NCBI GenBank assembly: GCA_030432235.1
Contig: JAUIHT010000001.1
Span: 806,001-870,000 of the forward strand
DNA: 64,000 bases
Source of the DNA: Verrucomicrobiia bacterium
Lineage (GTDB): Bacteria; Verrucomicrobiota; Verrucomicrobiia; Opitutales; Cerasicoccaceae
Direction of reading: 5' to 3'
Shown in pieces: positions 50,695 through 64,000 of the stretch. Both the position numbers and the translations under genes were made by a program. Position 1 is the stretch's first letter. Each line of letters begins with the position of its first letter. The notes beneath the pieces were generated by a model that saw nothing but the letters and a program-made list of their open reading frames with translations, was not told the DNA's origin and did not search any database.

Positions 50695-50770
<76 letters not shown>

Positions 50771-50775
50771 ATACT

Positions 50776-50806
50776 AAATGGCTGTAGTTAAGCCATTTAT
50801 GGTTTT
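50776..50806 (+). terminator. Hairpin terminator after tRNA-Lys
   Basis: AAATGGCT (50776-50783) pairs perfectly with AGCCATTT (50791-50798), then ATGGTTTTT. It ends the tRNA transcript and lies just inside the presumed element. Confidence 0.65.
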
Positions 50807-50841
50807 TGGCTCATTGCGATTTCCCGCACGTGTAAATCCCA

Positions 50842-50863
50842 CTTGGCCACTTCTTGGCCACTT
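50842..50863 (+). repeat. Tandem 11-bp direct repeat near the left attachment site
   Basis: CTTGGCCACTT occurs twice without a gap (50842-50852 and 50853-50863), one helical turn apart. Position and spacing suit arm-type integrase or excisionase binding sites; this is inference. Confidence 0.5.
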
Positions 50864-51172
50864 TTTTGAGGGGTGTATACTGCTTGCTTTCGGTAGAATG
50901 GGCTGTTTTTTCTTCCAACTCTAAATTTTTCGGTGAGCAGTTCACTGGTTTGATTTTAGCTTCACCTGAATTTTATATCACTGATATATAAGGGGGAGAA
51001 AAGTATGCCACCTATATTGTTAGGTGGCAGTTGAGTATTGATTTTCCACTATAGGATATGACGCACTGAAAAATCACATAATGTTTTTGTTGCAATTTTT
51101 AGGGAGAGTTTTTACTGAACATAAGATTACTTGTTGGTCACCTGTCAAAAATGCTATAAAAGAACCCATCTA
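50864..51172 (+). promoter_or_regulatory. Leader of the defence operon with two inverted repeats
   Basis: No gene is seen in these roughly 300 AT-rich bases. TATATC-ACT-GATATA lies at 50974-50988. A stronger inverted repeat TGCCACCTA/TAGGTGGCA with a 6-nt loop lies at 51006-51029, about 145 bp before the methyltransferase start and with no T run. Either could be an operator for the operon or for control by the methyltransferase or by the XRE-type regulator at 59023. Confidence 0.45.
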
Positions 51173-52609
51173 ATGATATCACCGATTGTCGATGTGCCTC
51201 CGATTGATAACGAACCGTCTTTGCAGAGGGCGTTATGTAACGGTGATACTATCGCCGAATCAGGGCCGGTGATAAGGTTTGTAGATCTATTTGCAGGATT
51301 GGGGGGATTCCATGTTGGATTATCGCGTTTGGGTTGCGAGTGTGTCTTTGCAAGTGAGTTGGACTCTGATTTGAGAAAAATTTACGAAGAGAATTTTGCT
51401 CTGAGGCCATGTGGAGATATCAGGAAAGTAAAAGCTAAAGATATTCCTGCTCACGATATCCTCTGCGCAGGATTTCCTTGCCAGCCCTTCTCTAAGGCAG
51501 GCGAGCAGCTTGGGTTAGATTGCGAGGAGTCTGGCGACCTGTTTCGAAGAATTATAAAAATAGCCCGTTTCCACAAACCTAGGCTGATTTTATTGGAGAA
51601 TGTCGCAAATTTGCCGAAACACGACAATGGCCGGACATGGGAAAAAAGATTTCGGAGGCGGCTGGAAAATGCGGGCTACAATGTTACCGAAAAAGAGTTA
51701 TCTCCCCATCAATTTGGTATTCCACAAATCAGGCCTCGATTCTTTGTTGTTGCAACACTTGATTCACTTGATGGCTTTGAATGGCCAGAGCCCCAGACCG
51801 ATCTAAGCGATTTATCTATTAGAACGGTATTAGAACAGGATCCGACGGATGCACGTAAGCTTTCGGAATTGCATCAAGAGGCAATCAACGTATGGCAGGA
51901 ATTTATAGATGCGTTTCCTTCGGATGAGGAACTGCCTTCTTTTCCAATTTGGTCTATGGAGTTTGGTGCTACCTATCCATATGAAGATAGTACGCCATTT
52001 AATTCAACTAGCCAGTTGCTTAGCCGTAGGAAAGGCTCTCATGGCGTGCCGCTTAACCAATTCTCTCCGGAAGAGCGTTTTGAATACTTGCCATCTCACG
52101 CCAGAGTAAAATCCGATAAGTTTCCGGATTGGAAAATTCGCTTCATCGAGCAGAACAGAGAGTTGTATAGAAAAAACAAAGACTGGATCGATTGTTGGTT
52201 GCCCAAGATTCTAAAATTTCCCTCAAGCCTACAAAAGTTAGAATGGAACTGTAAGGGTGAAGTCAGGGAGCTTAGCCGCTACATTCTTCAGTTGAGGGCT
52301 TCAGGCATTAGAGTCAAACGCCCGACTACGGCACCTGCGCTCGTAGCAATGACAACATCCCAAGTGCCTATAATTGGTTGGGAGAGTCGCTACATGACTG
52401 CTAAGGAGTGTAGTCGACTTCAATCACTTGATGAATTAAGCAGTTTGCCCAGCAATACATGCGCTGTTTTTAAGGCGCTTGGTAATGCTGTTAACGCTGA
52501 ATTGGTAAGGCTCATTGCAGAGCGTTGCATTACTCACTTACAAAACGGCTCCTCTACCTTAAATGCGAAATCAAGACTCAAGACTGTTACCTCTACAGAA
52601 CCAGTCTGA
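51173..52609 (+). CDS. DNA (cytosine-5)-methyltransferase
   Basis: 478 residues from ATG 51173; a TTG at 51131 would add 14 residues. C5-methylase motifs appear in order: I FVDLFAGLGGFHVGL, IV FPCQPFSKAGEQ with catalytic Cys103, VI LLENVANL, VIII QFGIPQIRPRFFVVA and X FKALGNAVNAELV. The target recognition region between VIII and X is long and gives no readable specificity. It is the first gene of the five-gene operon and overlaps the next by 47 bp. In this context it probably marks host DNA for the nucleases downstream. Confidence 0.93.
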   Translation: MISPIVDVPPIDNEPSLQRALCNGDTIAESGPVIRFVDLFAGLGGFHVGLSRLGCECVFASELDSDLRKIYEENFALRPCGDIRKVKAKDIPAHDILCAGFPCQPFSKAGEQLGLDCEESGDLFRRIIKIARFHKPRLILLENVANLPKHDNGRTWEKRFRRRLENAGYNVTEKELSPHQFGIPQIRPRFFVVATLDSLDGFEWPEPQTDLSDLSIRTVLEQDPTDARKLSELHQEAINVWQEFIDAFPSDEELPSFPIWSMEFGATYPYEDSTPFNSTSQLLSRRKGSHGVPLNQFSPEERFEYLPSHARVKSDKFPDWKIRFIEQNRELYRKNKDWIDCWLPKILKFPSSLQKLEWNCKGEVRELSRYILQLRASGIRVKRPTTAPALVAMTTSQVPIIGWESRYMTAKECSRLQSLDELSSLPSNTCAVFKALGNAVNAELVRLIAERCITHLQNGSSTLNAKSRLKTVTSTEPV

Positions 52610-54146
52610 GACCGTAAGCATACGGCCCGGCGTTAGTGTGCTTTCTGTATTGAAGCACCTGAACTACAAGCCGTGGTATGCGTTGGCTGAATTCGTTGAT
52701 AATTCAATTCAAAGCACGCTTCAAAATCTAGATGAATTGCGCTCAAAAGAGGGTGAAGATTATGTGTTGAAGGTCGACATTGAATTGGAAGAGTATGATG
52801 AAGGGCGTATCATAATTCGTGATAATGCCGCTGGTATCAAATACGAAGACTACCACCGTGCATTTAGACCCGCTGAGATCCCGCCAGATCGGTCCGGATT
52901 GGCTGAATTTGGCATGGGTATGAAAAGCGCGGCATGTTGGTTTTCTCCTCAGTGGAGTGTTCGTACGTCAGCTTTAGGTGAAAATGTTCAGCGTGAGATC
53001 CGCTTTAATATCGAGGAAATCATCACTGATTCTGTTGAAGAACTAACAATACTCACGACTGAAGAGGGAGAAGAATCTCATTACACTGAAATTACGCTCA
53101 CTGCTTTGCACAAACTTCCTTCTGGCCGAACACTGTCAAAAATCAAGGAGCATTTGACTGACATCTACCGTGTATTCATACGCGAAGGTATATTACAATT
53201 AACATTCAAGGGTGATGTTCTGGACTACGAAGAGCCGCCGATTCTTGAGGCACCAATGTATAATGCGAATAATGAGCCAGAGGGTGATCCACTTGTATGG
53301 CGTGTGTCTTTGGATGATTTTGATTTTGGAGATGAATTGAAGGCTACGGGATTTGCGGCATTACGTGCTGAAGGCAGCACTAAATATTCTGGTTTTTCAC
53401 TCTTTCGTAGGAATCGAGTCATTGAGGGGAGTGCGGATGAGAAATATAGGCCACAGCATATTTTTGGTGCTCCGAATTCCTATGTATACCAAAGACTCTT
53501 TGGCGAAATTCATTTAGAGGGATTTGACGTTTCACATACAAAAGATGGTTTTCGTTGGGATGAGAATGAAATGCCATTTTTGGAGTTGCTCAAAGAGAGA
53601 CTTAATCAATCACCACTCCCGTTGCTGCGTCAGGCAAATAATTATAGAGCGAATCCTCCTAGGCGAGAGGTAGAAGAGGTTGCGGAGCAAGTGACCGAAA
53701 GAACAGTTATGTCTTTGAGCCTCGCACGTGAAGCAATAGAGAAAACTTTTACAGATCAAGTAGAGGAGGGGCCTCCCGAAAGCGTAGAAGACATGAGATT
53801 GGTCTCAACTCGCTACCTAGATTTAGATTTTGAGAATAAGAAATGGCGCATTGTGCTAGAAATGTCTGATGAATCCTCTGTGGGTGACTTTATTTCGCTG
53901 TCAGAGTCGGTTATTGAGAATGAAGATGGAGGAGGAAGGGAATTGCTGGGAGTTAGGGTTTCTCTTTCTCACCCATTCATGCGTAGATTTGTTGGGATTG
54001 ACAGTGAAAAGCTTGAACCAGTGATTAGGTTAGTAGCAGCATTTGCACTATCTGAAAAGCTCGCAAGGGATGCTGGTGTCAGGCGTTGTGGTACTATGCG
54101 ATTAAGATTTAACAAAATTATCAAGGATGCCCTTTCGCGAGGATAA
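52563..54146 (+). CDS. GHKL-type ATPase (MutL/MORC-like)
   Basis: 527 residues. The GHKL ATP-binding motifs are visible: N box ALAEFVDNSIQS (Asn47), G1 IIIRDNAAGI and G2 LAEFGMGMKSAACWFS. The glycine motif followed by KSA resembles MORC and MutL rather than histidine kinases. A transducer-like middle (GFSLFRRNRVIEG) follows, then a C-terminal part of unknown fold. No phosphoacceptor His domain is present. It overlaps the methyltransferase by 47 bp and the next gene by about 20 bp. Similar ATPases sit beside Z1-domain proteins in known defence loci, where they are thought to act as ATP-gated clamps. Confidence 0.88.
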   Translation: MRNQDSRLLPLQNQSETVSIRPGVSVLSVLKHLNYKPWYALAEFVDNSIQSTLQNLDELRSKEGEDYVLKVDIELEEYDEGRIIIRDNAAGIKYEDYHRAFRPAEIPPDRSGLAEFGMGMKSAACWFSPQWSVRTSALGENVQREIRFNIEEIITDSVEELTILTTEEGEESHYTEITLTALHKLPSGRTLSKIKEHLTDIYRVFIREGILQLTFKGDVLDYEEPPILEAPMYNANNEPEGDPLVWRVSLDDFDFGDELKATGFAALRAEGSTKYSGFSLFRRNRVIEGSADEKYRPQHIFGAPNSYVYQRLFGEIHLEGFDVSHTKDGFRWDENEMPFLELLKERLNQSPLPLLRQANNYRANPPRREVEEVAEQVTERTVMSLSLAREAIEKTFTDQVEEGPPESVEDMRLVSTRYLDLDFENKKWRIVLEMSDESSVGDFISLSESVIENEDGGGRELLGVRVSLSHPFMRRFVGIDSEKLEPVIRLVAAFALSEKLARDAGVRRCGTMRLRFNKIIKDALSRG

Positions 54147-56361
54147 CTTAAAATTGCTATATACTATGAGTACTTTATCTGTTTTTCGGAATGATGGCGA
54201 GAATCTAGCATGGAGCCCGCAAATAGGCGAAGAAGCATTCTATGTTGTCGATAATAAGCTAGGGGACGATCATGAGGCAAAGGAACTTATATTGCAGCAA
54301 TCGACAAGAATTCTTCAAAAGTGTGTAAGGCCTGACGGGGGAGAAGCTTCTAGTACTGGCCTTGTCGTCGGATATGTACAAAGCGGAAAGACTTTATCTT
54401 TTACAACAGTTGCTGCTTTGGCAAATGACAATGGCTATAGATTAATAATCGTGATTGCTGGAATGACTAAGGAATTGTCAAAGCAATCTTATGATCGCTT
54501 AATTCAAGATCTAGGTGTTGAGCGCACGCCTTTTAGTAAGTGGGCTGAATTTTTTGAGCCTACAGATAATGATGTATCAACTTTTCGTGATGTCTTGAAT
54601 GCGGCACTTGATGAAGTAACCCCCCCTGAAGATAAACGTACAGTTATTATTACTTTAAAAAAGAATCATATAAGGCTTTCTAGTTTAAACTCAATTTTGG
54701 AGCAACTTCATGAAGTGGTTAATGTGCCTTGTCTTATTATAGATGATGAAGCAGATCAGGCTAGCCTAAATGCATTGGTCCGAAAGAATGAGTTAAGTAC
54801 AACATATAGTCAGATTAGAAGATTGAGGGAGTTGCTCCCTATGCATACTTTTCTTCAGTATACGGCAACTCCTCAAGCCCCATTGTTAATTAATATCATA
54901 GATGTGTTGTCACCTGACTTTGCTGAGGTAATTGAACCGGGTATTGAATATGTAGGAGGAGAATCGTTTTTTACCCCTAATACCTCCTATATCGAGGATA
55001 TTCCTGCGTCTGAGATTTCGACTCAAAACAATCTTCTTGTAGAGCCGCCAGAGAGTCTCATAAAGGCTATGAGCCTTTTTTTTATTGGCGTTGCATCAGG
55101 TTATATTCGAAGGGATTCAAATCCTCGAAACCGCTCTATGATGGTTCATCCGACACATAGAACGGTCGGTCATGCGCAATACTACAACTGGGTGCGTGAA
55201 ATAAGGCAAACCTGGATTGATACTCTAAGGCTTGATGATGGTGATGCTGATAAGGCTGAATTACTCGAAGAATTTTCAGAGGCGCATGCTGACATTGCAC
55301 TAACAGTAAATGATTTGGAGCCATTTAATGAAGAGTTTGTTAATAGGCTTCTTTTGGGGATTCTAAATACTGAACTTAGAATGGTGAATTCATTAGCCCA
55401 GGCGCGTAACATTAGATGGCGTAACCAGTATTCGTGGATTCTGGTCGGGGGGCAGGTTCTTGATAGGGGATTTACAGTTGAGGGACTTACTGTTACATAC
55501 ATGCCACGTGGTCCCGGTGTCGGGAATGCAGATACTGTTCAGCAGAGGGCTAGGTTCCTTGGCTATAAAAGGAGTTACTTGGGCTTTTGTCGCGTCTTCT
55601 TGGAAAGTAATGTATCCTTAGTTTATAGTCGGTATGTTCGGCATGAAGAGGATTTGAGGAATCGATTAATGGAACATATTTCAACAGGAGAGTCATTAAG
55701 TGACTTTCGTAGAGTGTTCCTTCTGGATTCTTCAATGCGACCAACAAGACAGGCTGTAATAGATATTGACTATATCAGGCCACGGTTTTCATCAGGCTGG
55801 TATAATCCAGCAGCTCCTCACGAGGCAGATGTAGATGAGAATAGATCTATTGTTCAGGCATTTATAAATAATCATGCTAATTCTTTTGTTGAAGATGAGG
55901 GAAGTGAAGAGAGATTGCCGAGTCATCGTCATTTGGTAGCAACAACCATAACTCTCTTGGAGGTCTATGAACAATTACTTGCGCAATTACAATTTCGAGA
56001 TCCAGAAGATAGTCCCAAATGGCTTACGGTGCTTATTTTGATTGATAGATTTTTATCAACAAATGAAGATGCTGCATGTGCGGTTTTTCAGATGAGGCCG
56101 AGCGAGAGAATCTCATATCGTTCTGCTCCGAATGGTAAAATTGCTAATCTTTTTCCGGGGGCGTATCCAGATACTAGGGGCGCAGTATATAGAGGTGACC
56201 GTTATATTAGGCAAAGCCCAGTTACTGTCCAACTGCATCGTATTACTTTGAGGAATGGCCCACGAAGTACCGATGCGGTTATTGCTGAAAATGTAGCAGT
56301 GCCGGGAATTTGGATGTCATCTGATGTACAATCAGGTGAATATATAGTACAACCTCAATAG
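54127..56361 (+). CDS. Z1-domain protein (superfamily 2 helicase-like ATPase)
   Basis: 744 residues from ATG 54127, or 731 from ATG 54166. Helicase-like motifs: Walker A GYVQSGKTLSF (from Gly82), Walker B CLIIDDEADQAS, motif III LQYTATPQAPLL and a late block VGGQVLDRGFTVEGLTVTYM with DTVQQRARFLGYK. This arrangement, with the Q-S-G-K-T loop and the DDEAD box, is that of the Z1 family. It is the core gene of the operon. Homologous Z1 proteins are linked with GHKL ATPases, DUF4420-type nucleases and methyltransferases in bacterial defence loci. The biochemical activity is unproven. Confidence 0.9.
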   Translation: MPFREDNLKLLYTMSTLSVFRNDGENLAWSPQIGEEAFYVVDNKLGDDHEAKELILQQSTRILQKCVRPDGGEASSTGLVVGYVQSGKTLSFTTVAALANDNGYRLIIVIAGMTKELSKQSYDRLIQDLGVERTPFSKWAEFFEPTDNDVSTFRDVLNAALDEVTPPEDKRTVIITLKKNHIRLSSLNSILEQLHEVVNVPCLIIDDEADQASLNALVRKNELSTTYSQIRRLRELLPMHTFLQYTATPQAPLLINIIDVLSPDFAEVIEPGIEYVGGESFFTPNTSYIEDIPASEISTQNNLLVEPPESLIKAMSLFFIGVASGYIRRDSNPRNRSMMVHPTHRTVGHAQYYNWVREIRQTWIDTLRLDDGDADKAELLEEFSEAHADIALTVNDLEPFNEEFVNRLLLGILNTELRMVNSLAQARNIRWRNQYSWILVGGQVLDRGFTVEGLTVTYMPRGPGVGNADTVQQRARFLGYKRSYLGFCRVFLESNVSLVYSRYVRHEEDLRNRLMEHISTGESLSDFRRVFLLDSSMRPTRQAVIDIDYIRPRFSSGWYNPAAPHEADVDENRSIVQAFINNHANSFVEDEGSEERLPSHRHLVATTITLLEVYEQLLAQLQFRDPEDSPKWLTVLILIDRFLSTNEDAACAVFQMRPSERISYRSAPNGKIANLFPGAYPDTRGAVYRGDRYIRQSPVTVQLHRITLRNGPRSTDAVIAENVAVPGIWMSSDVQSGEYIVQPQ

Positions 56362-57362
56362 TGAAATTTTTTATGTTGAGTGACTTAATCAGTATATACG
56401 AAAAATTGCAAATTCCGGTTCGTGCTTCAAGCGATATAGAGGAGTTTTTTACTGAGTGTATAGAAAATTGCGAGGGTTGGTATATTGGTAAGTCTTGCGA
56501 GAATACCCCAGTTCTAATCGTTAAGGCTAATGGGCCTAACTATCTGCGAAACCTGCCATATATTCAGCTAGAAAATTTACGAGTTTCTCACGGGGTGCTA
56601 TGTGATATGCGGTTTGATGATAAAAATGTCATACGAGACGAATACTCGATAATAGAGTGTTTGAGTGCTGAGTCAGATCTTCAAGTTTGTTTCTTGACTA
56701 TAGTTGAGGGTATTTCGACATGCCTAAGGGGTGATTGGAAAGTAGAGGATTTGGAGGCACTTATCGTAAACTTAGTGAATTTATTTAGAATTGTCCGAAA
56801 GCCACGGAATAAATCCATAGCAGGTCTTTGGGGTGAGCTTTTTACTATAATAGAATCACCTAATTCAGAAGCCATGATAAATGCATGCCATACCGATGTA
56901 AGTGAACGATATGATTTTAGTTCAGGCCATTGTCATCTTGAGGTGAAAGCAACTTCAAGCAGTGTGCGTAGTCATGTTTTCAAGCTTGAGCAAACAAACC
57001 CACCAAGCGGCTCAAGAATATTTATATGTTCCTTATTGCTTAATAAGCGCAATAACGGTCTTACTTTGGGTGAGCTATGGGATTCGGTAAGAAAAGCAAC
57101 AAGTGATCCAAGTCTTAAAATGAAGATCGAACGAGTCTGTATGGAGGCACTTGGCAATGAGATTGCAACTGCTCGTGGTGTAGGTTTTGACTACAATTTT
57201 GCCAAAGAGCATATTGCGTTCTTTAATGCTGAAGATGTACCTTGTCCTTCACCTGATCTGCCAAATGGTGTTTCAGAAGTGTCATTTCGCTCTGATCTCA
57301 CATTCAGTAAGCAAGTGGCCGGGGGCGATGATTCGGTTTTTTTGGAATTTTTTGCCAAGTAG
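56361..57362 (+). CDS. PD-(D/E)XK motif protein (DUF4420-like)
   Basis: 333 residues from GTG 56361, which overlaps the Z1 stop (TAGTG); ATG 56373 is the alternative. The nuclease core reads GLWGELFTIIESP, then Asp185 and Glu194-Val-Lys196 in RYDFSSGHCHLEVKATSSS, the D...ExK pattern. Proteins of this kind regularly follow Z1 genes. It would be the DNA-cleaving or DNA-sensing partner of the Z1 ATPase. Confidence 0.82.
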   Translation: MKFFMLSDLISIYEKLQIPVRASSDIEEFFTECIENCEGWYIGKSCENTPVLIVKANGPNYLRNLPYIQLENLRVSHGVLCDMRFDDKNVIRDEYSIIECLSAESDLQVCFLTIVEGISTCLRGDWKVEDLEALIVNLVNLFRIVRKPRNKSIAGLWGELFTIIESPNSEAMINACHTDVSERYDFSSGHCHLEVKATSSSVRSHVFKLEQTNPPSGSRIFICSLLLNKRNNGLTLGELWDSVRKATSDPSLKMKIERVCMEALGNEIATARGVGFDYNFAKEHIAFFNAEDVPCPSPDLPNGVSEVSFRSDLTFSKQVAGGDDSVFLEFFAK

Positions 57363-57373
57363 ATTATTACAAA

Positions 57374-58255
57374 ATGGCATATTGGTTATTTAAAATTTCT
57401 GAGCAGGATCTCTATCCAGACAAACCGGGTATTAGCTATGTATTTGACAATACACATTCTGTTCGGGTTAAAAAAGGTGATACTTTTCTCTACCTCGATA
57501 AGGCTAGAGGGTACTCTTTTACTGCTACGGGAACTGTGGGCAGGATAGCAGAAAGAAAGCCAACGTTAAAAGAGTCAGAAAGAACTCGAAAAATTAGAGT
57601 AGTCTACACCGCTCATCTCGCGGATGTCATTTGGTTTTCTAGTCCGCTATCTATATCGCCCACGAAAATAGAAGGGAAAAGGGTTCGTGCACAACTTGGT
57701 ATACGGGATGTGAATTTGCTGGGGTGGTCACAATCAATACCATCGCTCAATGAAGAAATGTATTCATCGATCATTGATATAGCTGAGTTAAAAGGCCTAT
57801 TCCGGGTTGAAGGTTCCAGCCGTTTTTCTATTCCGGATACTTGGGGTAGAGCGAAATCACGTCCTGCGATGACCGGCTTCTCGGCTCTTGTTTTAGGGCG
57901 CAGTTTGTACAGTTGCATCGTCTGTGGAACACAACAGCCTGGCTTGGTTGATGCCGCGCATCTTAGCCCATATGCTACGGACATAGAAAATAGAGCAAAT
58001 CCAGCAAATGGGATATGCTTGTGTAAGTACTGTCATCGTGCGTTGGACCTGAGGCTTATTGCAATTTCACCTAGTGGTGAATTATTAGTTTCGCCAGAGA
58101 TAAAAGACCCGGTTGCGGAATTTCATTTTGCACAAATTGACGCCGGTACAAGAAGGCGTCTATTGCTGGGCGTTGATCCGGCTTTTTTGGAACTTACAGT
58201 AAAGTGGCACAATGAATATTTATATTCAAAAGCCACATCGAGAACATCCTCGTGA
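57374..58255 (+). CDS. HNH endonuclease with N-terminal EVE/PUA-like domain
   Basis: 293 residues. The N-terminal 150 residues (MAYWLFKISEQDLYPDKPG, then VRVKKGDTFLYLDKARG, GTVGRIAERKP) resemble the EVE/PUA-like fold that reads modified cytosines; this is a pattern judgement. The C-terminal HNH domain has complete residues: Cys181 and Cys184 (CIVC), His196 in DAAHLSPYATD, Asn212 in NPANGICLCKYCHRALD, Cys217, Cys220 and His221. It closes the operon 11 bp after the PD-(D/E)XK gene. Related Z1 loci are often closed by AIPR or Vsr proteins instead. Confidence 0.82.
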   Translation: MAYWLFKISEQDLYPDKPGISYVFDNTHSVRVKKGDTFLYLDKARGYSFTATGTVGRIAERKPTLKESERTRKIRVVYTAHLADVIWFSSPLSISPTKIEGKRVRAQLGIRDVNLLGWSQSIPSLNEEMYSSIIDIAELKGLFRVEGSSRFSIPDTWGRAKSRPAMTGFSALVLGRSLYSCIVCGTQQPGLVDAAHLSPYATDIENRANPANGICLCKYCHRALDLRLIAISPSGELLVSPEIKDPVAEFHFAQIDAGTRRRLLLGVDPAFLELTVKWHNEYLYSKATSRTSS

Positions 58256-58272
58256 AGCCTGCATTCATTGTT

Positions 58273-58941
58273 TTACCACTTCACTATCAAATCTACTTGG
58301 ACTTTTCCCTTGCCTCTGCAATCCGGGCAACGGGCATTGCCCTGCAAGTCGCTTAACTTACCATCACCAAAACATCTTGAGCATGGTTCCAGCCTGTAGC
58401 TTTCGAGTGTCCATTCTTCCCCCGCACGTAAGCGACTAACAAATTCATCACGTGAAAGTAAGGGGGGCTGTATCTCTACAAGCTCCTTCACGCTCTTCTG
58501 GGCACCTAGGGCGGTGGTGTAAGTACGCACATTGCCTGTTTTGATGGCGAAGATGCCAGAGATTGTTTCGCCCCCTACGGCATTCCAAGGTGACTCAGTT
58601 ACAAGCCAATAGAGGGTTGAGCGATCAGGCTGAGAGTAATTATAGGTGTAGGAGCCGCCACCGCCGCCATAGCTAGATGAACTGGATGATACCACACGGC
58701 TAACAGCTTTCATTGGATAAACAAGGTAGTTGGTGTCGCTTAGGCGCTGTAACACTTCAAAGGCTTCTGGCACTCCCGCTTCCTTCGATTGAACCGCTGC
58801 AAACACATTAAGTAGTTCAGTCTTGTCAGCGCCCACCTTGGATACCCTGAACTCTTTTACCGGATTATCGGCGGATACCAGATTGGGCATCAAGAACAGC
58901 AATGAAAGAAACACAGGGTATTGGACTATCACTGATTTCAT
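58273..58941 (-). CDS. Secreted protein with DnaJ-type zinc-finger C-terminus
   Basis: 222 residues from the ATG at 58941, which gives a signal peptide (MKSVIVQYPVFLSLLFLMPN, then LVSA); an ATG at 58977 lies upstream. The middle has a Ser/Gly/Tyr run (SSSSSYGGGGGSYTYNY). The end has two CxxCxGxG units, CSRCFGDGKL and CPDCRGKGKV, as in the DnaJ zinc finger. A CxxC pair with a signal peptide is unusual. It converges with the defence operon (17 bp between stops) and has no obvious link with it. Confidence 0.65.
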   Translation of the reverse strand: MKSVIVQYPVFLSLLFLMPNLVSADNPVKEFRVSKVGADKTELLNVFAAVQSKEAGVPEAFEVLQRLSDTNYLVYPMKAVSRVVSSSSSSYGGGGGSYTYNYSQPDRSTLYWLVTESPWNAVGGETISGIFAIKTGNVRTYTTALGAQKSVKELVEIQPPLLSRDEFVSRLRAGEEWTLESYRLEPCSRCFGDGKLSDLQGNARCPDCRGKGKVQVDLIVKW

Positions 58942-59022
58942 ATCCAAGGGGATTTGAGTTCCATGAAAAACACACACGAACGTATGTATCCGAGAGTGTG
59001 CCTTGCAAGGTAAAATTTATGA

Positions 59023-59247
59023 GTGAGCAGCATTAAAAAGAAGTTTGGCCAGAGCGTGTATCGACTGAGGCAGGGAAGGGGCCTATCTCAGATGGAACTG
59101 GCTGCAAGAGCCGACCTACACCTTAATTCTGTCAACCGTATTGAAGCGGGTGAAAAGGATGTTCAGTTGGAGACCATCGAGAAGCTTGCCAAAGGTTTAG
59201 ACTGCAAGATGTCTGATATTTTCAGCGTCGTAGAAAAGCAGAAGTAG
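59023..59247 (+). CDS. XRE-family helix-turn-helix regulator
   Basis: 74 residues, a single HTH domain: FGQSVYRLRQGRGLSQMELA, then LHLNSVNRIEAGEKDVQLET. The start is GTG 59023. Divergent from the secreted protein and convergent with the terminase. Small XRE proteins of this size control phage lysogeny or restriction operons, so it is a candidate regulator of the element. Confidence 0.85.
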   Translation: MSSIKKKFGQSVYRLRQGRGLSQMELAARADLHLNSVNRIEAGEKDVQLETIEKLAKGLDCKMSDIFSVVEKQK

Positions 59248-59252
59248 AGCAC

Positions 59253-60560
59253 CTACGCTGCAAGTATTCGTTTCTTGGGGCGTTGGTAGAGCGCTCCTAG
59301 GACAGAATCCGCCCTATCGGGGCTCTGAAGCCCCCTAGAGGCCATTTTAGGCTTCGGCTCTACCTGTACCTGCCCCCGGCTATTGAGGGCGTATCTACGT
59401 GAGACCAATTGTTCATGCAGAACCTTATCATTAGGGAGGATCACGCCGCCTGACTTGATGAGCTGAGCCCCTAGCATCCAGATTTCAGTTCCGGTGTTTG
59501 CATAGGCTTCCGTATCCTTGGCGGGCTTTTCATTGCGTATACGGTTTATCTTCCATCCTAGCTCATTGAGACGGTCTAAAATGGGGATACCTAGCCCTGA
59601 TGCATCGGCGCTGATCTGGGAGGCGGACAAGCCCTCTTGCTTGAACAGACGTATAAACTCTCCACAGGCTGACATGGTATTACGATCACGCCATGCCTTG
59701 ACGATTTTCACCTGATTCCCCCTACGGACAGCCAAGACGTTCTCATCGCCCCCGGCAGCAAAATCGCAGAAGGCATGAGCGCTGCCATCCTCAGGTTCAG
59801 GAGGGTTATCCAAACATGCTTCAAGACTCGATAGGGGGATGACTGATTGTTCGCTGTCATCATCTGGAAACTCAGCGTAAATCATGCTGCGCACAAGCGG
59901 GCTATCTTCTCCGTATTTTTCGATTTGCTCCTGAATCCATGTATCCGAGATATGCGGGCAGTCATAGGCCGTAACTGTCATTTGATGGAAAAATCTCCTT
60001 TCAGACGTAAAGGCACGGTAGAACTTGCCTTTACGAGGGCCGGGAGAGCTAACCAGCACAAGGCGCTGAGGCTGGCAGCGCTCTATGGCTTGAAAGATTT
60101 CATCGGGTATCGACTTGGCCTCATCACAGATGACTAGCAGGTTGTCATTGTGCCATCCCTCAAACCGTCCCGCATCATCGGTAGAGAAGCCATAGATTCT
60201 CGATCCGGTCGGTGTTTCAATCTCCGTTTCAAGAAACTTCCAATCTGAGAACAGGTATTGATACTTTCGAAGCTCAGGAAATGCTTGCTCCTTCACTTGG
60301 CGAAAAACCCCGGCAGTGACAAGCGTAAGACTGCCCTTAAAGGCTACCGCGTGCCACAAGGCCAAAAGTGCGACTAGGCGGGATGTCTTTCCTGTGCCGT
60401 TAGCTGCCTTTAGCGCAAGACTGCTGCCCCGCTCGTTAACGGCTGCCATTGCCTCGATACACCAAGGGTAGAGGTTAACGTCCAAAACACCCATAGCAAA
60501 ACCATAAGGGAGGTGTAAGAGGCTCTCTATGTCATTCTGCGATACCAGCCCTTGTTTCAT
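59253..60560 (-). CDS. Phage-type terminase large subunit
   Basis: 435 residues from ATG 60560, which has AGGAGA four nucleotides upstream; an ATG at 60590 is also in frame. ATPase motifs: Walker A AANGTGKTSRL and Walker B LLVICDEAKSIPDE. The nuclease half shows CDFAAGGDEN, SADASGLGIPILDRL and a late DRADSVLGALY. These proteins package DNA into phage heads. It overlaps the small subunit gene by 29 bp. Capsid and portal genes are not present in the window. Confidence 0.87.
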   Translation of the reverse strand: MKQGLVSQNDIESLLHLPYGFAMGVLDVNLYPWCIEAMAAVNERGSSLALKAANGTGKTSRLVALLALWHAVAFKGSLTLVTAGVFRQVKEQAFPELRKYQYLFSDWKFLETEIETPTGSRIYGFSTDDAGRFEGWHNDNLLVICDEAKSIPDEIFQAIERCQPQRLVLVSSPGPRKGKFYRAFTSERRFFHQMTVTAYDCPHISDTWIQEQIEKYGEDSPLVRSMIYAEFPDDDSEQSVIPLSSLEACLDNPPEPEDGSAHAFCDFAAGGDENVLAVRRGNQVKIVKAWRDRNTMSACGEFIRLFKQEGLSASQISADASGLGIPILDRLNELGWKINRIRNEKPAKDTEAYANTGTEIWMLGAQLIKSGGVILPNDKVLHEQLVSRRYALNSRGQVQVEPKPKMASRGLQSPDRADSVLGALYQRPKKRILAA

Positions 60561-60969
60561 ACTGTCTCCTAGCCTCTGCAATCTTCTCAAGTGTTGCGTT
60601 GTCTATGCTGTGCCTATGGTTGACTGAACCCTCGTGCTTGTGGGCAACCTCTACGCGATTCTTGGCAAAGTCTTCCGGCTTTACGTGCTCCAGCCACCAC
60701 ATTGCCGATCTCACATCGCCATTCTTGGCCGCATCCCTTATAAGAGATAGGCGGACAGCAACGCCCTCAGCAATTGCCTTGTCTATGGCATCAGAAAACT
60801 CAGGAAAATGACGCCGCCATTCACAGAAGGTTTCGTACGATATGCCTGCCAGCGCTGAAGCATCCTTTAGGGGGAGGCCATCAGAGATATGCCCTAGAAT
60901 CTCTTTGGTAAGGCTTGGCGTGCGCTTCGTGGGTCTTCCGCGTTTTCTCCTTCGTGTTCGTACTTTCAT
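60532..60969 (-). CDS. Terminase small subunit-like DNA-binding protein
   Basis: 145 residues from ATG 60969 (ATG 60999 also possible). A basic N-terminus (KVRTRRRKRGRPTKRTP) precedes a helix-turn-helix (LPLKDASALAGISYETFCEW) and a helical part (RDAAKNGDVRSAMWWLEHVK). This is the usual layout of small terminase subunits and phiRv-like homologues. It is directly followed by the large subunit. An inverted repeat (TTGAAA/TTTCAA) lies at 60972-60987, just before the start. Confidence 0.75.
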   Translation of the reverse strand: MKVRTRRRKRGRPTKRTPSLTKEILGHISDGLPLKDASALAGISYETFCEWRRHFPEFSDAIDKAIAEGVAVRLSLIRDAAKNGDVRSAMWWLEHVKPEDFAKNRVEVAHKHEGSVNHRHSIDNATLEKIAEARRQYETRAGIAE

Positions 60970-60988
60970 TTTTGAAACTGGTTTCAAT

Positions 60989-61888
60989 TTACATCGCACA
61001 GACAGCTTCAGGTGGCCCTGACTCTGGCAAAACAGTCTCCCATTGGAACTGTTCTCGCCTCAATTGAGCGGCTGTTACTTTTCTCCTCCAATCACTTGCG
61101 GTTCTGGTATTCAGGCATTGGAGAATTAAATCCATAGGTGACGTTGTTCCGTTTTCAGCAGCTTCTTCTTCAAGAATTGCTATGGCTTCGTAAATGTCTC
61201 TAGGGGCATCTACTTCTACGGAAGGCGCAAAGGTGATCATCAAGTCTCGGTATGCTCTGTAGCACAGATTAAAATCCAATTCAGCTACTTGATCTCTACC
61301 ATTGGCTAAGTATCGCCTTAGGGGAGCATTTGATAGTTGGATTTCTATTCGTGAAATGTCTCCATTCCTATTTTCGCGCTCTAGTGTCTTATCGTACATG
61401 GCAAATCTTTTGCCTTCATAATCCCATGAGGCCGATCTGTCTCTGAATCTCGTGTTTGGTCTTCTGCACCTAGGGAATCGACAATTTCGGTGGGCACGAA
61501 TAAGCCTATCAGGTGGGAAGTGAAATTGCCAACAAAGGTCAACTCTCGTGTAATACTCTATTCCACTGGTAGTATTGGCAATATCACTGAGGACATGAAA
61601 CAGGCTGTCGATTGCTGTATCAACCTGCTCTTGATTCTCAATCAATCTTGCATTGTCACCATGTATAAGCCTAGGGAGCGATACCTTAACGGAAGTTATT
61701 GTGTCACTATATCCAGTTATGAATATTCCAAAAATTACATGGTGAGCACGAAAAGTTTCTCTATACGTTATGGGATCATCACAAATCTCAGGAGTTATCC
61801 GTGTTGACCAATGTGTCAGCTGCCAGTCATCATTTATTTCCGTTATTGGGAAATGGCATTTAAAGGAAATAGTATCGATCACGAACAT
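60989..61888 (-). CDS. Candidate replication initiation protein (phage G2P/X-like)
   Basis: 299 residues. N-terminal MFVIDTISFKCHFPI and the middle pattern YYTRVDLCWQFHFPPDRLI, then SWDYEGKRFAMYDKTLER and ISRIEIQLSNAPLRRYL, resemble replication initiators of the filamentous-phage G2P family, which carry an RVD, a K and RIE/RFE block. Catalytic Tyr residues cannot be assigned safely by eye. Its place beside terminase and winged-helix genes suits a small element with its own replication. Confidence 0.55.
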   Translation of the reverse strand: MFVIDTISFKCHFPITEINDDWQLTHWSTRITPEICDDPITYRETFRAHHVIFGIFITGYSDTITSVKVSLPRLIHGDNARLIENQEQVDTAIDSLFHVLSDIANTTSGIEYYTRVDLCWQFHFPPDRLIRAHRNCRFPRCRRPNTRFRDRSASWDYEGKRFAMYDKTLERENRNGDISRIEIQLSNAPLRRYLANGRDQVAELDFNLCYRAYRDLMITFAPSVEVDAPRDIYEAIAILEEEAAENGTTSPMDLILQCLNTRTASDWRRKVTAAQLRREQFQWETVLPESGPPEAVCAM

Positions 61889-61946
61889 ATCTCAAAGGTT
61901 TGGTGGTTTTACGTCGTTTAGCCCGGTGCTACTAGGGATTCCAAAG

Positions 61947-62348
61947 TTATTCAGCTACCAGAGATTCGATCACCTGATAATCTAGGCGATACAGCTTGGA
62001 TTTTGTGCCCTTCCTGTGATCAACCAGTAAGATTCTCATTTCTTCCAAAAGTCGGAAATAGCGTCGAATTGTTGATTCAGACATCCACGCGAGGGCATTC
62101 TTATTCAATTCTGGCAATGACCATTTGAGCCAGCTCTCTCCGTCTTTGATGATAAGATTGTTTCCGCGCTCTATAGCTTGGTGTAATGCCTGTACAATCA
62201 AGGCATGTTTAAATCCAATCCTACAGGCTAACGCCTTATCGCATAGAATGGGCTCATAGCCATTGTCTAGTAGAAGTTCACCGCCTCGAACAGTGATTCG
62301 ATGAAAGCGACTTGTCGAAAGAGATAGATTATAATTTCGTGCGCTCAT
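61947..62348 (-). CDS. Winged-helix-like DNA-binding protein of the element
   Basis: 133 residues. The C-terminal half looks like a winged helix: LPELNKNALAWMSESTIRRY, then FRLLEEMRILLVDHRKGTKS with YRLDY. Such proteins act as phage replication or regulatory factors. Its start overlaps the stop of the following excisionase-like gene by 4 bp (ATGA). Confidence 0.6.
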   Translation of the reverse strand: MSARNYNLSLSTSRFHRITVRGGELLLDNGYEPILCDKALACRIGFKHALIVQALHQAIERGNNLIIKDGESWLKWSLPELNKNALAWMSESTIRRYFRLLEEMRILLVDHRKGTKSKLYRLDYQVIESLVAE

Positions 62349-62557
62349 GCTAAAGCCTCCTGTTCAAGTTGCTCGATGTCGCTGAGGCGATATCTGACAA
62401 GGTGAGAACTTAAGCGCAATGCCCTTAGTGAGCCGTCGCGTTCCCGGCGTTTGATTGTCGAGATTGAGCAGCCCCATCGAATGGCAAGTTCGCCTCTGCT
62501 GAGGGTTGCTTGAGAGCTTTGGGGCTGGATAGGTGTGACATGCTTTATACTTAACAT
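62345..62557 (-). CDS. Excisionase/AlpA-like DNA-binding protein
   Basis: 70 residues from ATG 62557 (ATG 62575 also in frame). The HTH reads LSRGELAIRWGCSISTIKRR followed by RDGSLRALRLSSHLVRYRLS and DIEQLEQEAL, the MerR-like winged HTH of excisionases. It lies between the integrase region and the replication genes, as expected for a directionality factor. Confidence 0.72.
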   Translation of the reverse strand: MLSIKHVTPIQPQSSQATLSRGELAIRWGCSISTIKRRERDGSLRALRLSSHLVRYRLSDIEQLEQEALA

Positions 62558-62619
62558 GCCTTTATATTGCCACACATGCCCTGCCTCGTAAATTTATCGA
62601 GGTAGGGACGTGATCTGTT

Positions 62620-63177
62620 TTAAATCCTACCTTCTTTTTTCAATTTGCGTATTGCCTTATTGATGTCCTGAATTACATACCCGGACTCGGTGCTAAGCTT
62701 TCTCCATGCAGGCATTTCCTGAAGCACGCTATAAACATTACTTGTGCTAACTTTTTCTCCATTATCTTTGAGAATGAGGCAGGCGGTATATATGTGGTAA
62801 TCCTTTCCAGAACTTTCAAATCCCTTCCAGACTTCTTCCATTACTTGAAGCTTTTCTAGGCAAAGGCGCATTTGCTTAAAGAATTCAAAATCATACTCAG
62901 CTACAGCAACAGTTAGCACATTTGAAAGGTGTTGGCTCCATTGGGTCTTGTTGGCGATTGTAATTACTTCTGTATTATCACGATATATCTCACGTGAGAA
63001 CAAATTTATCTGGAAACAGAAAGCAAATACGTCTGAGTCAATGCCCCTGTAATTTTGGGTAATATCTCTATGGGTGCTTTCGACCCACTCATCATTGCAG
63101 TAGGGGTATGCGTCTGTAACCGCTTTTAGAACCTTCTTAACGGGAGCTGAGATCGGCTGTTGTTTTCCTCTACTCAT
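62620..63177 (-). CDS. Protein of unknown function next to the integrase
   Basis: 185 residues from ATG 63177 (ATG 63210 is an earlier in-frame option). It is helical and charged, with segments VKKVLKAVTDAYPYCNDEWV and ITQNYRGIDSDVFAFCFQIN, and ends IQDINKAIRKLKKEGRI. No family is recognised. It overlaps the integrase stop by 8 bp, so the two are cotranscribed. Confidence 0.6.
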   Translation of the reverse strand: MSRGKQQPISAPVKKVLKAVTDAYPYCNDEWVESTHRDITQNYRGIDSDVFAFCFQINLFSREIYRDNTEVITIANKTQWSQHLSNVLTVAVAEYDFEFFKQMRLCLEKLQVMEEVWKGFESSGKDYHIYTACLILKDNGEKVSTSNVYSVLQEMPAWRKLSTESGYVIQDINKAIRKLKKEGRI

Positions 63178-64000
63178 TTGAAGCAATTCTTTCAGGATTC
63201 GTTTCCTCAATTGGTATTGAGGGACTTTCTTTCTCGTTAAGCAAACTCCCTAGCCCAACAGTTACACGCTTCTTTTTGTCGGCGTAGAATTGGGCAGTGA
63301 TGGCAATATCGGAATGCCTGAGGGCGCGAGATGCGGCAAAGATGCCGTGTTCATTTACGATGATGCTCCCATATTCCTTCCTGAGTTCATGTAGGGGCTT
63401 GCGGGCAGTGATGCCTTTGGAGCGGAGCCACTTGATGAGATTGGAAAAGATATAGTTGCAGCGATATGTAGGGTAGGAGGTTCTTACCTTTGTGGGGTTA
63501 GGGGAGTGGATTACAAAAATGGATGTGCTCCTTGCTTTCATGCCTCTAAAGAAGGAGAGGACTTCCTCATCAAGATCGAGTTCGTCAATGCTGTCTTCGC
63601 TCTTGGCATCAAAATGCTCTGTGGGCTTTATGCTCAGAATGCCTTTTTCAAAGTCGAAGGCATCCCATTCCAGCTTATCAATCTCGTTTCGTCTCAACCC
63701 AGCCATGACAGCGAGATAAAAAACCTTCAGCTCCTCTAGGTTATCTTTTGGTAGTTCATTCATTGCATCACTGATGAGCCCCTTCAGATCGACTTTCGAA
63801 TGATAGCGGCACGATTGGCGGGGGTAAAAACTCACGCCCTCAAAAGGGAGAGGATCGGGCAACTCAACTGTAAGTAGATTGGTGTGCTTTTTGGCAAAAA
63901 GAGCCTTGGCCTGTCGCATGACGGAATTGCAGCTAATCTTGGCCTTTCGAATGGATACGGGCGTTTGCTCCCTACGGGCTACATAGTCATTTTTCCACTT
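63170..64000 (-). CDS. Tyrosine recombinase/integrase (5' end outside window)
   Basis: 276 residues are visible; the frame stays open past base 64000 (KWKNDYVARREQTPVSIRKA at the edge), so the start lies beyond. Catalytic boxes: AGLRRNEIDKLEWDAFDFEK (box I Arg), LHELRKEYGSIIV (His-x-x-Arg), ALRHSDIAITAQFYADKKKR (His and the Tyr nucleophile in QFY). It is transcribed toward the element interior from its right end. It should recombine the element at tRNA-Lys. Confidence 0.9.
   Translation of the reverse strand, partial: KWKNDYVARREQTPVSIRKAKISCNSVMRQAKALFAKKHTNLLTVELPDPLPFEGVSFYPRQSCRYHSKVDLKGLISDAMNELPKDNLEELKVFYLAVMAGLRRNEIDKLEWDAFDFEKGILSIKPTEHFDAKSEDSIDELDLDEEVLSFFRGMKARSTSIFVIHSPNPTKVRTSYPTYRCNYIFSNLIKWLRSKGITARKPLHELRKEYGSIIVNEHGIFAASRALRHSDIAITAQFYADKKKRVTVGLGSLLNEKESPSIPIEETNPERIASNE

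What the first reader, a model, noticed from the sequence alone, without database searches (positions are those of the whole stretch)
51173..58255. Five-gene methyltransferase-GHKL-Z1-PD-(D/E)XK-EVE/HNH operon: a variant defence system
Five genes on one strand are packed with overlaps (47 bp, about 20 bp, 1 bp) or an 11-bp gap, which implies one functional unit. Seen directly: C5-methylase motifs with Cys103, a GHKL site (N47, GMGMKSA), a Z1-type ATPase (GYVQSGKT, DDEAD), a D185...E194xK196 nuclease core and a complete HNH. From memory, loci with MutL-like ATPase, Z1 and DUF4420 proteins, often with AIPR or Vsr and sometimes a Dcm-type methylase, have been reported as phage defence (Mza group). 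This one has no AIPR or Vsr and ends in an EVE-like-HNH protein. I infer a self/non-self system in which the methylase marks the host, the GHKL and Z1 ATPases form an ATP-driven DNA-scanning complex, and two different nucleases act on foreign DNA.
Basis: partly seen in the sequence, partly recalled or inferred. Interest (0 to 1): 0.85.

Follow-up and report, generated by a model that had tools for sequence, protein, structure and literature searches.

The report
MORC-type restriction-modification operon plus EVE-HNH
Five adjacent bacterial genes form an anti-virus restriction-modification system whose four-gene core (DNA methylase, MORC ATPase, Z1 ATPase, nuclease) recurs across a dozen phyla and was predicted in 2008, while the fifth gene, probably a nuclease that senses modified DNA, is a rare local addition.

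Summary
All five genes, their overlaps and their motifs are present as described. They fall into two parts. (1) A four-gene core: 5mC methylase, GHKL ATPase, Z1 SF2 ATPase and DUF4420 PD-(D/E)XK nuclease. It recurs in this order in 47 related loci from about 12 phyla, plasmids and proviruses, with a methylase and GHKL lineage never seen in 95 more distant Z1 loci. All catalytic residues are conserved. By motif and predicted fold the GHKL protein is closest to eukaryotic MORC/SMCHD1 rather than MutL. This is the MORC-SFII-helicase-NRE-Dcm operon predicted by Iyer et al. 2008 (PMC2292703), re-proposed in related form in 2022 (PMC9523054); Mza is only a distant cousin. I found no experimental test in the searchable literature. 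(2) The fifth gene, an EVE-like-HNH protein, is not part of the conserved unit. That place is occupied elsewhere by Vsr, MTaX1, DUF3427-HNH or AspBHI-Mrr proteins, or by nothing. The only close relative found lies beside the same cassette on one provirus contig, reversed. The operon is cargo of a ~13.9-kb satellite-like element in a tRNA-Lys gene. Most likely it is an ATP-dependent restriction-modification system with an add-on modification-dependent nuclease: a new variant of a known, untested kind.

The parts
50695..50770 (+). tRNA-Lys(CTT) gene; its 3' half lies in the integration site
   Evidence: ARAGORN
50725..50820 (+). left copy (attL) of a ~96-bp imperfect direct repeat; right copy at window-based 64647-64741, just outside the window (L145)
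   Evidence: local alignment; 12-mer matches
51173..52609 (+). C5-cytosine DNA methyltransferase (478 aa; PCQ Cys103, ENV142-144, QxRxR185-189, GNAV437-440)
   Evidence: Pfam DNA_methylase 1.7e-61; PADLOC DruM-type/MTase_II ~248 bits; motifs conserved in an alignment of 37 sequences
52563..54146 (+). MORC-type GHKL ATPase with S5 domain and uncharacterised C-terminal domain (527 aa)
   Evidence: HATPase_c_3 1.1e-14; MORC S5 motif GFSLFRRNRVI, invariant G277/R282/R285 in 45 sequences; AlphaFold2 pLDDT 87; best structural neighbours SMCHD1 and MORC2/3/4
54127..56361 (+). Z1 superfamily-2 ATPase (744 aa; Walker A GYVQSGKT, DDEAD, QYTATPQ, DTVQQRARFLG)
   Evidence: Pfam Z1 8.9e-33; PADLOC Helicase_II 5.7e-53; 45-sequence conservation
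56361..57362 (+). DUF4420 / 'NRE' PD-(D/E)XK nuclease (333 aa, GTG start; E159-D185-E194xK196)
   Evidence: Pfam DUF4420 7e-22; E159, D185, K196 42/42, position 194 E 33 / D 9
57374..58255 (+). EVE-like domain (about 1-100) fused to a Zn-type HNH nuclease (H196, N212, H221; C181/C184/C217/C220); probable modification-dependent endonuclease
   Evidence: HNH_2 3e-11; EVE 0.018, sub-threshold; phmmer match to 6yex (VcaM4I), E=0.029, HNH part only; 42-43% identical relative in L115
59253..60590 (-). terminase large subunit of the mobile element carrying the operon
   Evidence: PHROG 2, 5.8e-25
60532..60999 (-). terminase small subunit
   Evidence: PHROG 4102, 7.3e-23
61947..62348 (-). DnaD-like replication protein
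   Evidence: PHROG 6493, 2.3e-11
63170..64000 (-). tyrosine integrase (459 aa in full; runs to window-based 64549 in L145)
   Evidence: Pfam Phage_integrase 1.5e-8 on the C-terminal part; full ORF

Best explanation
An ATP-dependent restriction-modification defence system of the prokaryotic-MORC type, carried as cargo by a phage-satellite-like element. Proposed working: the C5-methylase marks a host target sequence. A MORC ATPase dimer acts as an ATP-gated DNA clamp and the Z1 SF2 ATPase translocates on or remodels DNA; together they license the DUF4420 PD-(D/E)XK nuclease to cut DNA that lacks the mark. The fifth protein is a separately acquired EVE-like-HNH, modification-dependent (type IV-like) endonuclease that would attack foreign DNA whose cytosines carry other modifications and so escape the core. 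Shown here: gene content, intact active sites, conserved gene order, lineage-specific co-occurrence, MORC-like predicted fold, island context. Inferred: methylation, clamp, translocation, cleavage and protection; the specificity of gene 5.
For: The core recurs in 47 short-Z1 loci: GHKL directly upstream in 41/43 (the two exceptions have split GHKL or Z1 frames), DUF4420 directly downstream in 41/44, same-lineage methylase upstream in 32/39. Zero of 95 more distant Z1 loci carry that methylase lineage (>300 bits) or GHKL lineage (>400 bits). Pairwise identities correlate between components (GHKL-Z1 r=0.92, Z1-NRE 0.87, M-GHKL 0.75). Catalytic residues are invariant in 42-45 sequences. GHKL fold is nearest SMCHD1/MORC (Z 26.2-23.4) above Hsp90/TRAP1 (about 22). 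Vsr, a partner of 5mC methylases, lies beside 11 of 48 cassettes, which argues that the methylases are active. DEAD-Z1 proteins of CglI/NgoAVII are ATPases needed for restriction (PMC4267653). The only close relative found of gene 5 is also beside this cassette.
Against: No experiment supports any step. The EVE assignment is sub-threshold and the structure prediction of gene 5 failed (pLDDT 42). A 5mC-reading nuclease co-transcribed with a 5mC methylase would be self-toxic unless their specificities differ (precedent of conflict: PcaRCI/PcaRCII, PMC8989522). Methylase target domains look uniformly conserved, unusual for diversifying restriction-modification systems, so the methylase might do more than mark self.
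Confidence: 0.62

Rival explanations
1. Mza-like abortive defence: the complex senses infection (for example DNA structure or replication) and its nucleases damage host and phage DNA; the methylase tunes or restrains it rather than marking restriction sites.
For: Component types are shared with Mza (Z1, DUF4420, GHKL), which PMC9523054 calls validated. The methylase is not found upstream of 7 of 39 cassettes with enough upstream sequence.
Against: No AIPR or MzaA here; scores far below Mza cut-offs (14.6/850, 98/1500, 20/420 bits). A lineage-specific methylase is present in 32/39 cassettes.
Confidence: 0.17
2. Gene 5 is a functional fifth subunit rather than an add-on: its EVE-like domain reads the methylase's own mark (hemi-methylated sites or deamination products) and its HNH does Vsr-like repair or serves as a second cutting subunit of the complex.
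For: Only 11 bp after the nuclease gene on the same strand. Its only close relative found is beside the same cassette. In two Hymenobacter loci a DUF3427-HNH protein stands directly after Z1 with no DUF4420 gene detected. This genome has no Vsr.
Against: Absent from nearly all cassettes. In L115 it is encoded convergently and next to a Vsr gene, so it is not a Vsr substitute there. No match in 23 other cassette-bearing genomes (which itself carries no positive control).
Confidence: 0.13
3. The operon mainly serves its mobile element: a selfish restriction-modification module that stabilises the tRNA-Lys satellite or excludes competing phages.
For: It lies inside a ~13.9-kb element with tRNA-Lys direct repeats, integrase and terminase. 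Relatives lie on 9 IMG/VR contigs and 2 plasmids.
Against: Many relatives lie in genome contigs for which no mobile-element association was examined. Not exclusive with the best explanation.
Confidence: 0.08

Closest known systems
Prokaryotic MORC restriction-modification operons, third type (Iyer, Abhiman & Aravind 2008, PMC2292703)
   Same: GHKL-S5 MORC protein with the GhXhhpXXRhl motif, SF2 helicase with the (near-)DThhQXuRhFG motif, E-D-ExK nuclease 'NRE', cytosine methylase; Vsr in relatives
   Different: EVE-like-HNH as fifth gene. HNH nucleases are described there with SWI2/SNF2-type and paraMORC1 operons, not with this type in the text read
Putative defence system types I and II of the NLP study (PMC9523054, 2022)
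   Same: Core of Z1, DUF4420 (printed as DUF4220) and cytosine methylase; wide distribution; DNA-repair endonuclease (type I) or MORC association (type II)
   Different: Z1 there is about 925 aa against 744 here; type II carries AIPR; no EVE-HNH mentioned
mzaABCDE (Gao et al. 2020, as cited in PMC9523054)
   Same: GHKL ATPase, Z1 and DUF4420 components, distantly homologous
   Different: No AIPR or MzaA here; a methylase is present here; all scores far below Mza equivalog cut-offs
CglI / NgoAVII / BceSIV restriction-modification systems (PMC4267653)
   Same: Z1-containing SF2 ATPase working with a nuclease and a DNA methylase; ATP-dependent cleavage shown there
   Different: Nuclease there is PLD plus a B3 domain; no MORC, no DUF4420
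VcaM4I, EVE-HNH modification-dependent endonuclease (PMC7897488)
   Same: EVE(-like)-HNH order; weak HNH sequence match
   Different: VcaM4I is described as a single-protein restriction enzyme; the EVE part here is below threshold; gene 5 has a four-cysteine Zn-type HNH
VcSduA / paraMORC3 Shedu (PMC12137116)
   Same: GHKL ATPase controlling a PD-(D/E)XK nuclease, both active sites needed for defence
   Different: There fused in one protein with DUF4263; no Z1 or methylase

Membership tests
Prokaryotic MORC restriction-modification operon, type 3 (Iyer 2008) | MORC-family GHKL+S5 protein with GhXhhpXXRhl motif | tested here: met
   GFSLFRRNRVI at 277-287; G277, R282, R285 45/45, hydrophobic positions conserved; fold nearest SMCHD1/MORC2-4
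Prokaryotic MORC restriction-modification operon, type 3 (Iyer 2008) | SF2 helicase with C-terminal DThhQXuRhFG motif | tested here: met
   DTVQQRARFLG at 469-479, two positions off the formula (Q472, L478); family consensus DTIQQRARFFG
Prokaryotic MORC restriction-modification operon, type 3 (Iyer 2008) | additional RE-fold nuclease with E-D-ExK | tested here: met
   E159, D185, E/D194, K196 conserved in 42 sequences
Prokaryotic MORC restriction-modification operon, type 3 (Iyer 2008) | DNA methylase in the neighbourhood, conserved linkage | tested here: met
   same-lineage methylase upstream in 32 of 39 cassettes; 0 of 95 distant Z1 loci
Prokaryotic MORC restriction-modification operon, type 3 (Iyer 2008) | restriction and methylation activity | not testable with these tools
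   needs experiment
Mza system | MzaB, MzaC, MzaD equivalogs | tested here: not met
   14.6, 98.3 and 20.2 bits against cut-offs 850, 1500 and 420
Mza system | AIPR protein present | tested here: not met
   no AIPR Pfam or PADLOC hit among the five genes, and no AIPR Pfam hit in the downstream neighbours scanned
CglI-type restriction-modification | R protein with PLD nuclease and B3 domain | tested here: not met
   no such domains among the five proteins
CglI-type restriction-modification | SF2 ATPase with Z1 domain | tested here: met
   Pfam Z1 8.9e-33
EVE-HNH modification-dependent endonuclease (gene 5) | HNH nuclease domain with catalytic residues | tested here: met
   HNH_2 3e-11; H196, N212, H221 and four cysteines shared with L115
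EVE-HNH modification-dependent endonuclease (gene 5) | N-terminal EVE (PUA-superfamily) domain | tested here: inconclusive
   Pfam EVE top hit, 15.5 bits against cut-off 23, E=0.018; 0.12 for the relative; AlphaFold2 model failed
EVE-HNH modification-dependent endonuclease (gene 5) | cleavage only of modified DNA | not testable with these tools
   needs experiment

The most novel reading that the evidence does not exclude
A two-layer system in one apparent operon: a MORC-gated, ATP-dependent restriction-modification core that destroys DNA lacking its 5mC mark, plus a co-transcribed EVE-HNH nuclease that destroys DNA with foreign cytosine modification. The two specificities would have evolved not to clash, so a phage could escape neither by lacking nor by carrying cytosine modifications.
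Probability: 0.35. Interest if true: 0.6.

Novelty: new variant of a known kind. Interest (0 to 1): 0.42.

Why it matters
Bacterial MORC proteins are the proposed relatives from which the eukaryotic MORC chromatin ATPases arose, yet their biochemistry was described in 2021 as poorly understood (PMC8011034). This compact four-gene cassette, with a MORC-like predicted fold and conserved active sites in 47 loci, is a tractable system in which to ask what a bacterial MORC does to DNA. If gene 5 is modification-dependent, the operon also pairs mark-absence and mark-presence targeting, which normally conflict.

Tried and rejected
Filing as Mza: rejected, scores far below cut-offs and no AIPR. Gene 5 as a Vsr replacement: weakened, because Vsr and HNH genes coexist near the cassette in L024, L036, L058 and L115. 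A fixed five-gene unit: rejected. Structure of gene 5: AlphaFold2 with a two-sequence alignment gave pLDDT 42, unusable. Wider hunts for gene 5 relatives in viral contigs, plasmids, phages and about 790 further genomes gave only HNH-domain matches, very weak partial matches or L115; the scan that returned L115 used patterns taken from L115 itself, so its linkage to the cassette is partly ascertained. Profile searches of GHKL and Z1 alignments against PDB sequences gave nothing convincing. Methylase target-domain conservation as proof of one shared specificity: only suggestive, since control methylases behave similarly at higher identity. Structure of DUF4420 and of the GHKL C-terminal domain alone: not run for lack of jobs. 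Promoter scan: no excess over shuffles.
Full report
Observation. Pfam assigns C5 DNA methylase, HATPase_c_3, Z1, DUF4420 and HNH_2. The quoted motif residues are present and are conserved columns in homologues.

The conserved unit is four genes. From an alignment of four Z1 proteins (A1) I scanned genome and viral collections, called ORFs and typed neighbours. Forty-seven loci carry the short Z1 type (median 743 aa); record titles include Nitrospiraceae, Hydrogenedentota, Kouleothrix (Chloroflexi), Planctomycetaceae, Acidobacteria, Poribacteria, Bacteroidetes, Proteobacteria, Levyibacteriota, Actinobacteria, Spirochaetales and Binatia, and one locus is in another genome of the window's own phylum. 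GHKL lies directly upstream in 41/43 loci with enough sequence (the two exceptions have split frames), DUF4420 directly downstream in 41/44, and the same methylase lineage upstream in 32/39. None of 95 more distant Z1 loci has that methylase (best 90 bits against more than 300) or that GHKL lineage (best 228 bits against more than 400). Component identities co-vary. This is co-inheritance as one unit.

Active sites. GHKL E43, N47, D87, G91, G117, G119, K121, T175 and K327 are 45/45. DUF4420 E159, D185 and K196 are 42/42, with position 194 E or D. Z1 Walker A, DDEAD, QYTATP and motif VI are conserved. All four enzymes should be active.

The GHKL protein is MORC-type. It carries the motif that Iyer et al. 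use to define MORC, GhXhhpXXRhl, as GFSLFRRNRVI. An AlphaFold2 model from 36 sequences has pLDDT 87.4. Structural alignment ranks SMCHD1 (Z 26.2), MORC3 (24.8), MORC2 (24.5) and MORC4 (23.5) above TRAP1/Hsp90 (about 22) over residues 21-364; Foldseek's first hit is mouse Morc3. The margin over Hsp90 is modest, so motif and fold together carry the argument. The C-terminal part (about 365-527) is unassigned.

The fifth gene. Its HNH half is clear. Its N-terminal half has Pfam EVE as best but sub-threshold hit, also for its relative. The relative, 42-43% identical over its length, is in L115, an IMG/VR contig, beside the same cassette but on the other strand and next to a Vsr gene. No other full-length relative was found in 388 genomes of the phylum, 398 genomes of another phylum, 23 cassette-bearing genomes, phages or plasmids; searches carried no positive control. 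Elsewhere the place after the nuclease gene holds MTaX1 proteins (L047, L048, L051, L059, L070, L116), DUF3427-HNH (two Hymenobacter loci, where no DUF4420 gene was detected), other HNH proteins (L035, L036, L108), AspBHI-Mrr (L032), Vsr (L002, L028) or nothing recognised. Vsr lies near 11 of 48 cassettes. So the accessory slot is variable and often holds a nuclease, several of them of modification-sensing type.

Mechanism. Established relatives: CglI/NgoAVII show that a DEAD-Z1 ATPase drives ATP-dependent cleavage with a partner nuclease on DNA with non-methylated recognition sites (PMC4267653). In VcSduA a GHKL ATPase and a PD-(D/E)xK nuclease are both needed for phage defence (PMC12137116). 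By analogy the MORC protein probably forms an ATP-gated clamp and Z1 a translocase or remodeller that license DUF4420 to cut DNA lacking the methylase mark. This is inference. Gene 5 is best explained as an EVE-HNH modification-dependent nuclease like VcaM4I, which flips 5mC or 5hmC (PMC7897488). Because a 5mC-dependent HNH can clash with a resident 5mC methylase (PcaRCI/PcaRCII, PMC8989522), its specificity must avoid the product of gene 1.

Known versus new. Iyer et al. 2008 already described MORC operons with this SF2 helicase, the E-D-ExK nuclease, cytosine methylases and Vsr. PMC9523054 re-proposed a related core as a putative defence system, with Mza as a distant validated cousin. No experimental study of the MORC cassette turned up in the searchable library, which lacks most subscription journals. 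The new points are the EVE-like-HNH variant, the quantified four-gene core, and the MORC/SMCHD1-like predicted fold.

Context. Composition drops from about 58% to 41% GC at the operon. A direct repeat of the tRNA-Lys 3' half and adjacent sequence (50725-50820; 64647-64741 in window-based numbering) brackets a ~13.9-kb element with integrase, DnaD-like protein and both terminase subunits; no capsid or tail genes were recognised among the proteins scanned. The operon is satellite-like cargo next to attL.

Noticed in passing
window 50725-64000, continuing to window-based 64741 in L145: A ~13.9-kb element in tRNA-Lys with integrase, DnaD-like protein and terminase small and large subunits but no recognised structural genes looks like a phage satellite carrying the defence operon as cargo.
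   Followed up: partly
L024 (6336-11129) and L058 (7341-12163): In two Hymenobacter loci the DUF4420 nuclease gene was not detected and a DUF3427-HNH protein follows Z1 directly, suggesting nuclease exchange; the L024 copy also has split GHKL and Z1 frames.
   Followed up: partly
L109-L111, L114: On four IMG/VR contigs the stored contig ends at the DUF4420 stop codon, so the cassette lies at the very edge of predicted proviruses; this may reflect gene-based boundary calling.
   Followed up: no
window 51173-52609: The methylase scores best among PADLOC models with a Druantia DruM-type profile (248 bits, nearly full length); the target-recognition region holds many near-invariant residues across phyla, hinting at a shared target sequence.
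   Followed up: partly
L047, L048, L051, L059, L070, L116: MTaX1-domain proteins ('methylase-associated X1') recurrently follow the four-gene core, sometimes as about 600-aa proteins; function unknown.
   Followed up: no
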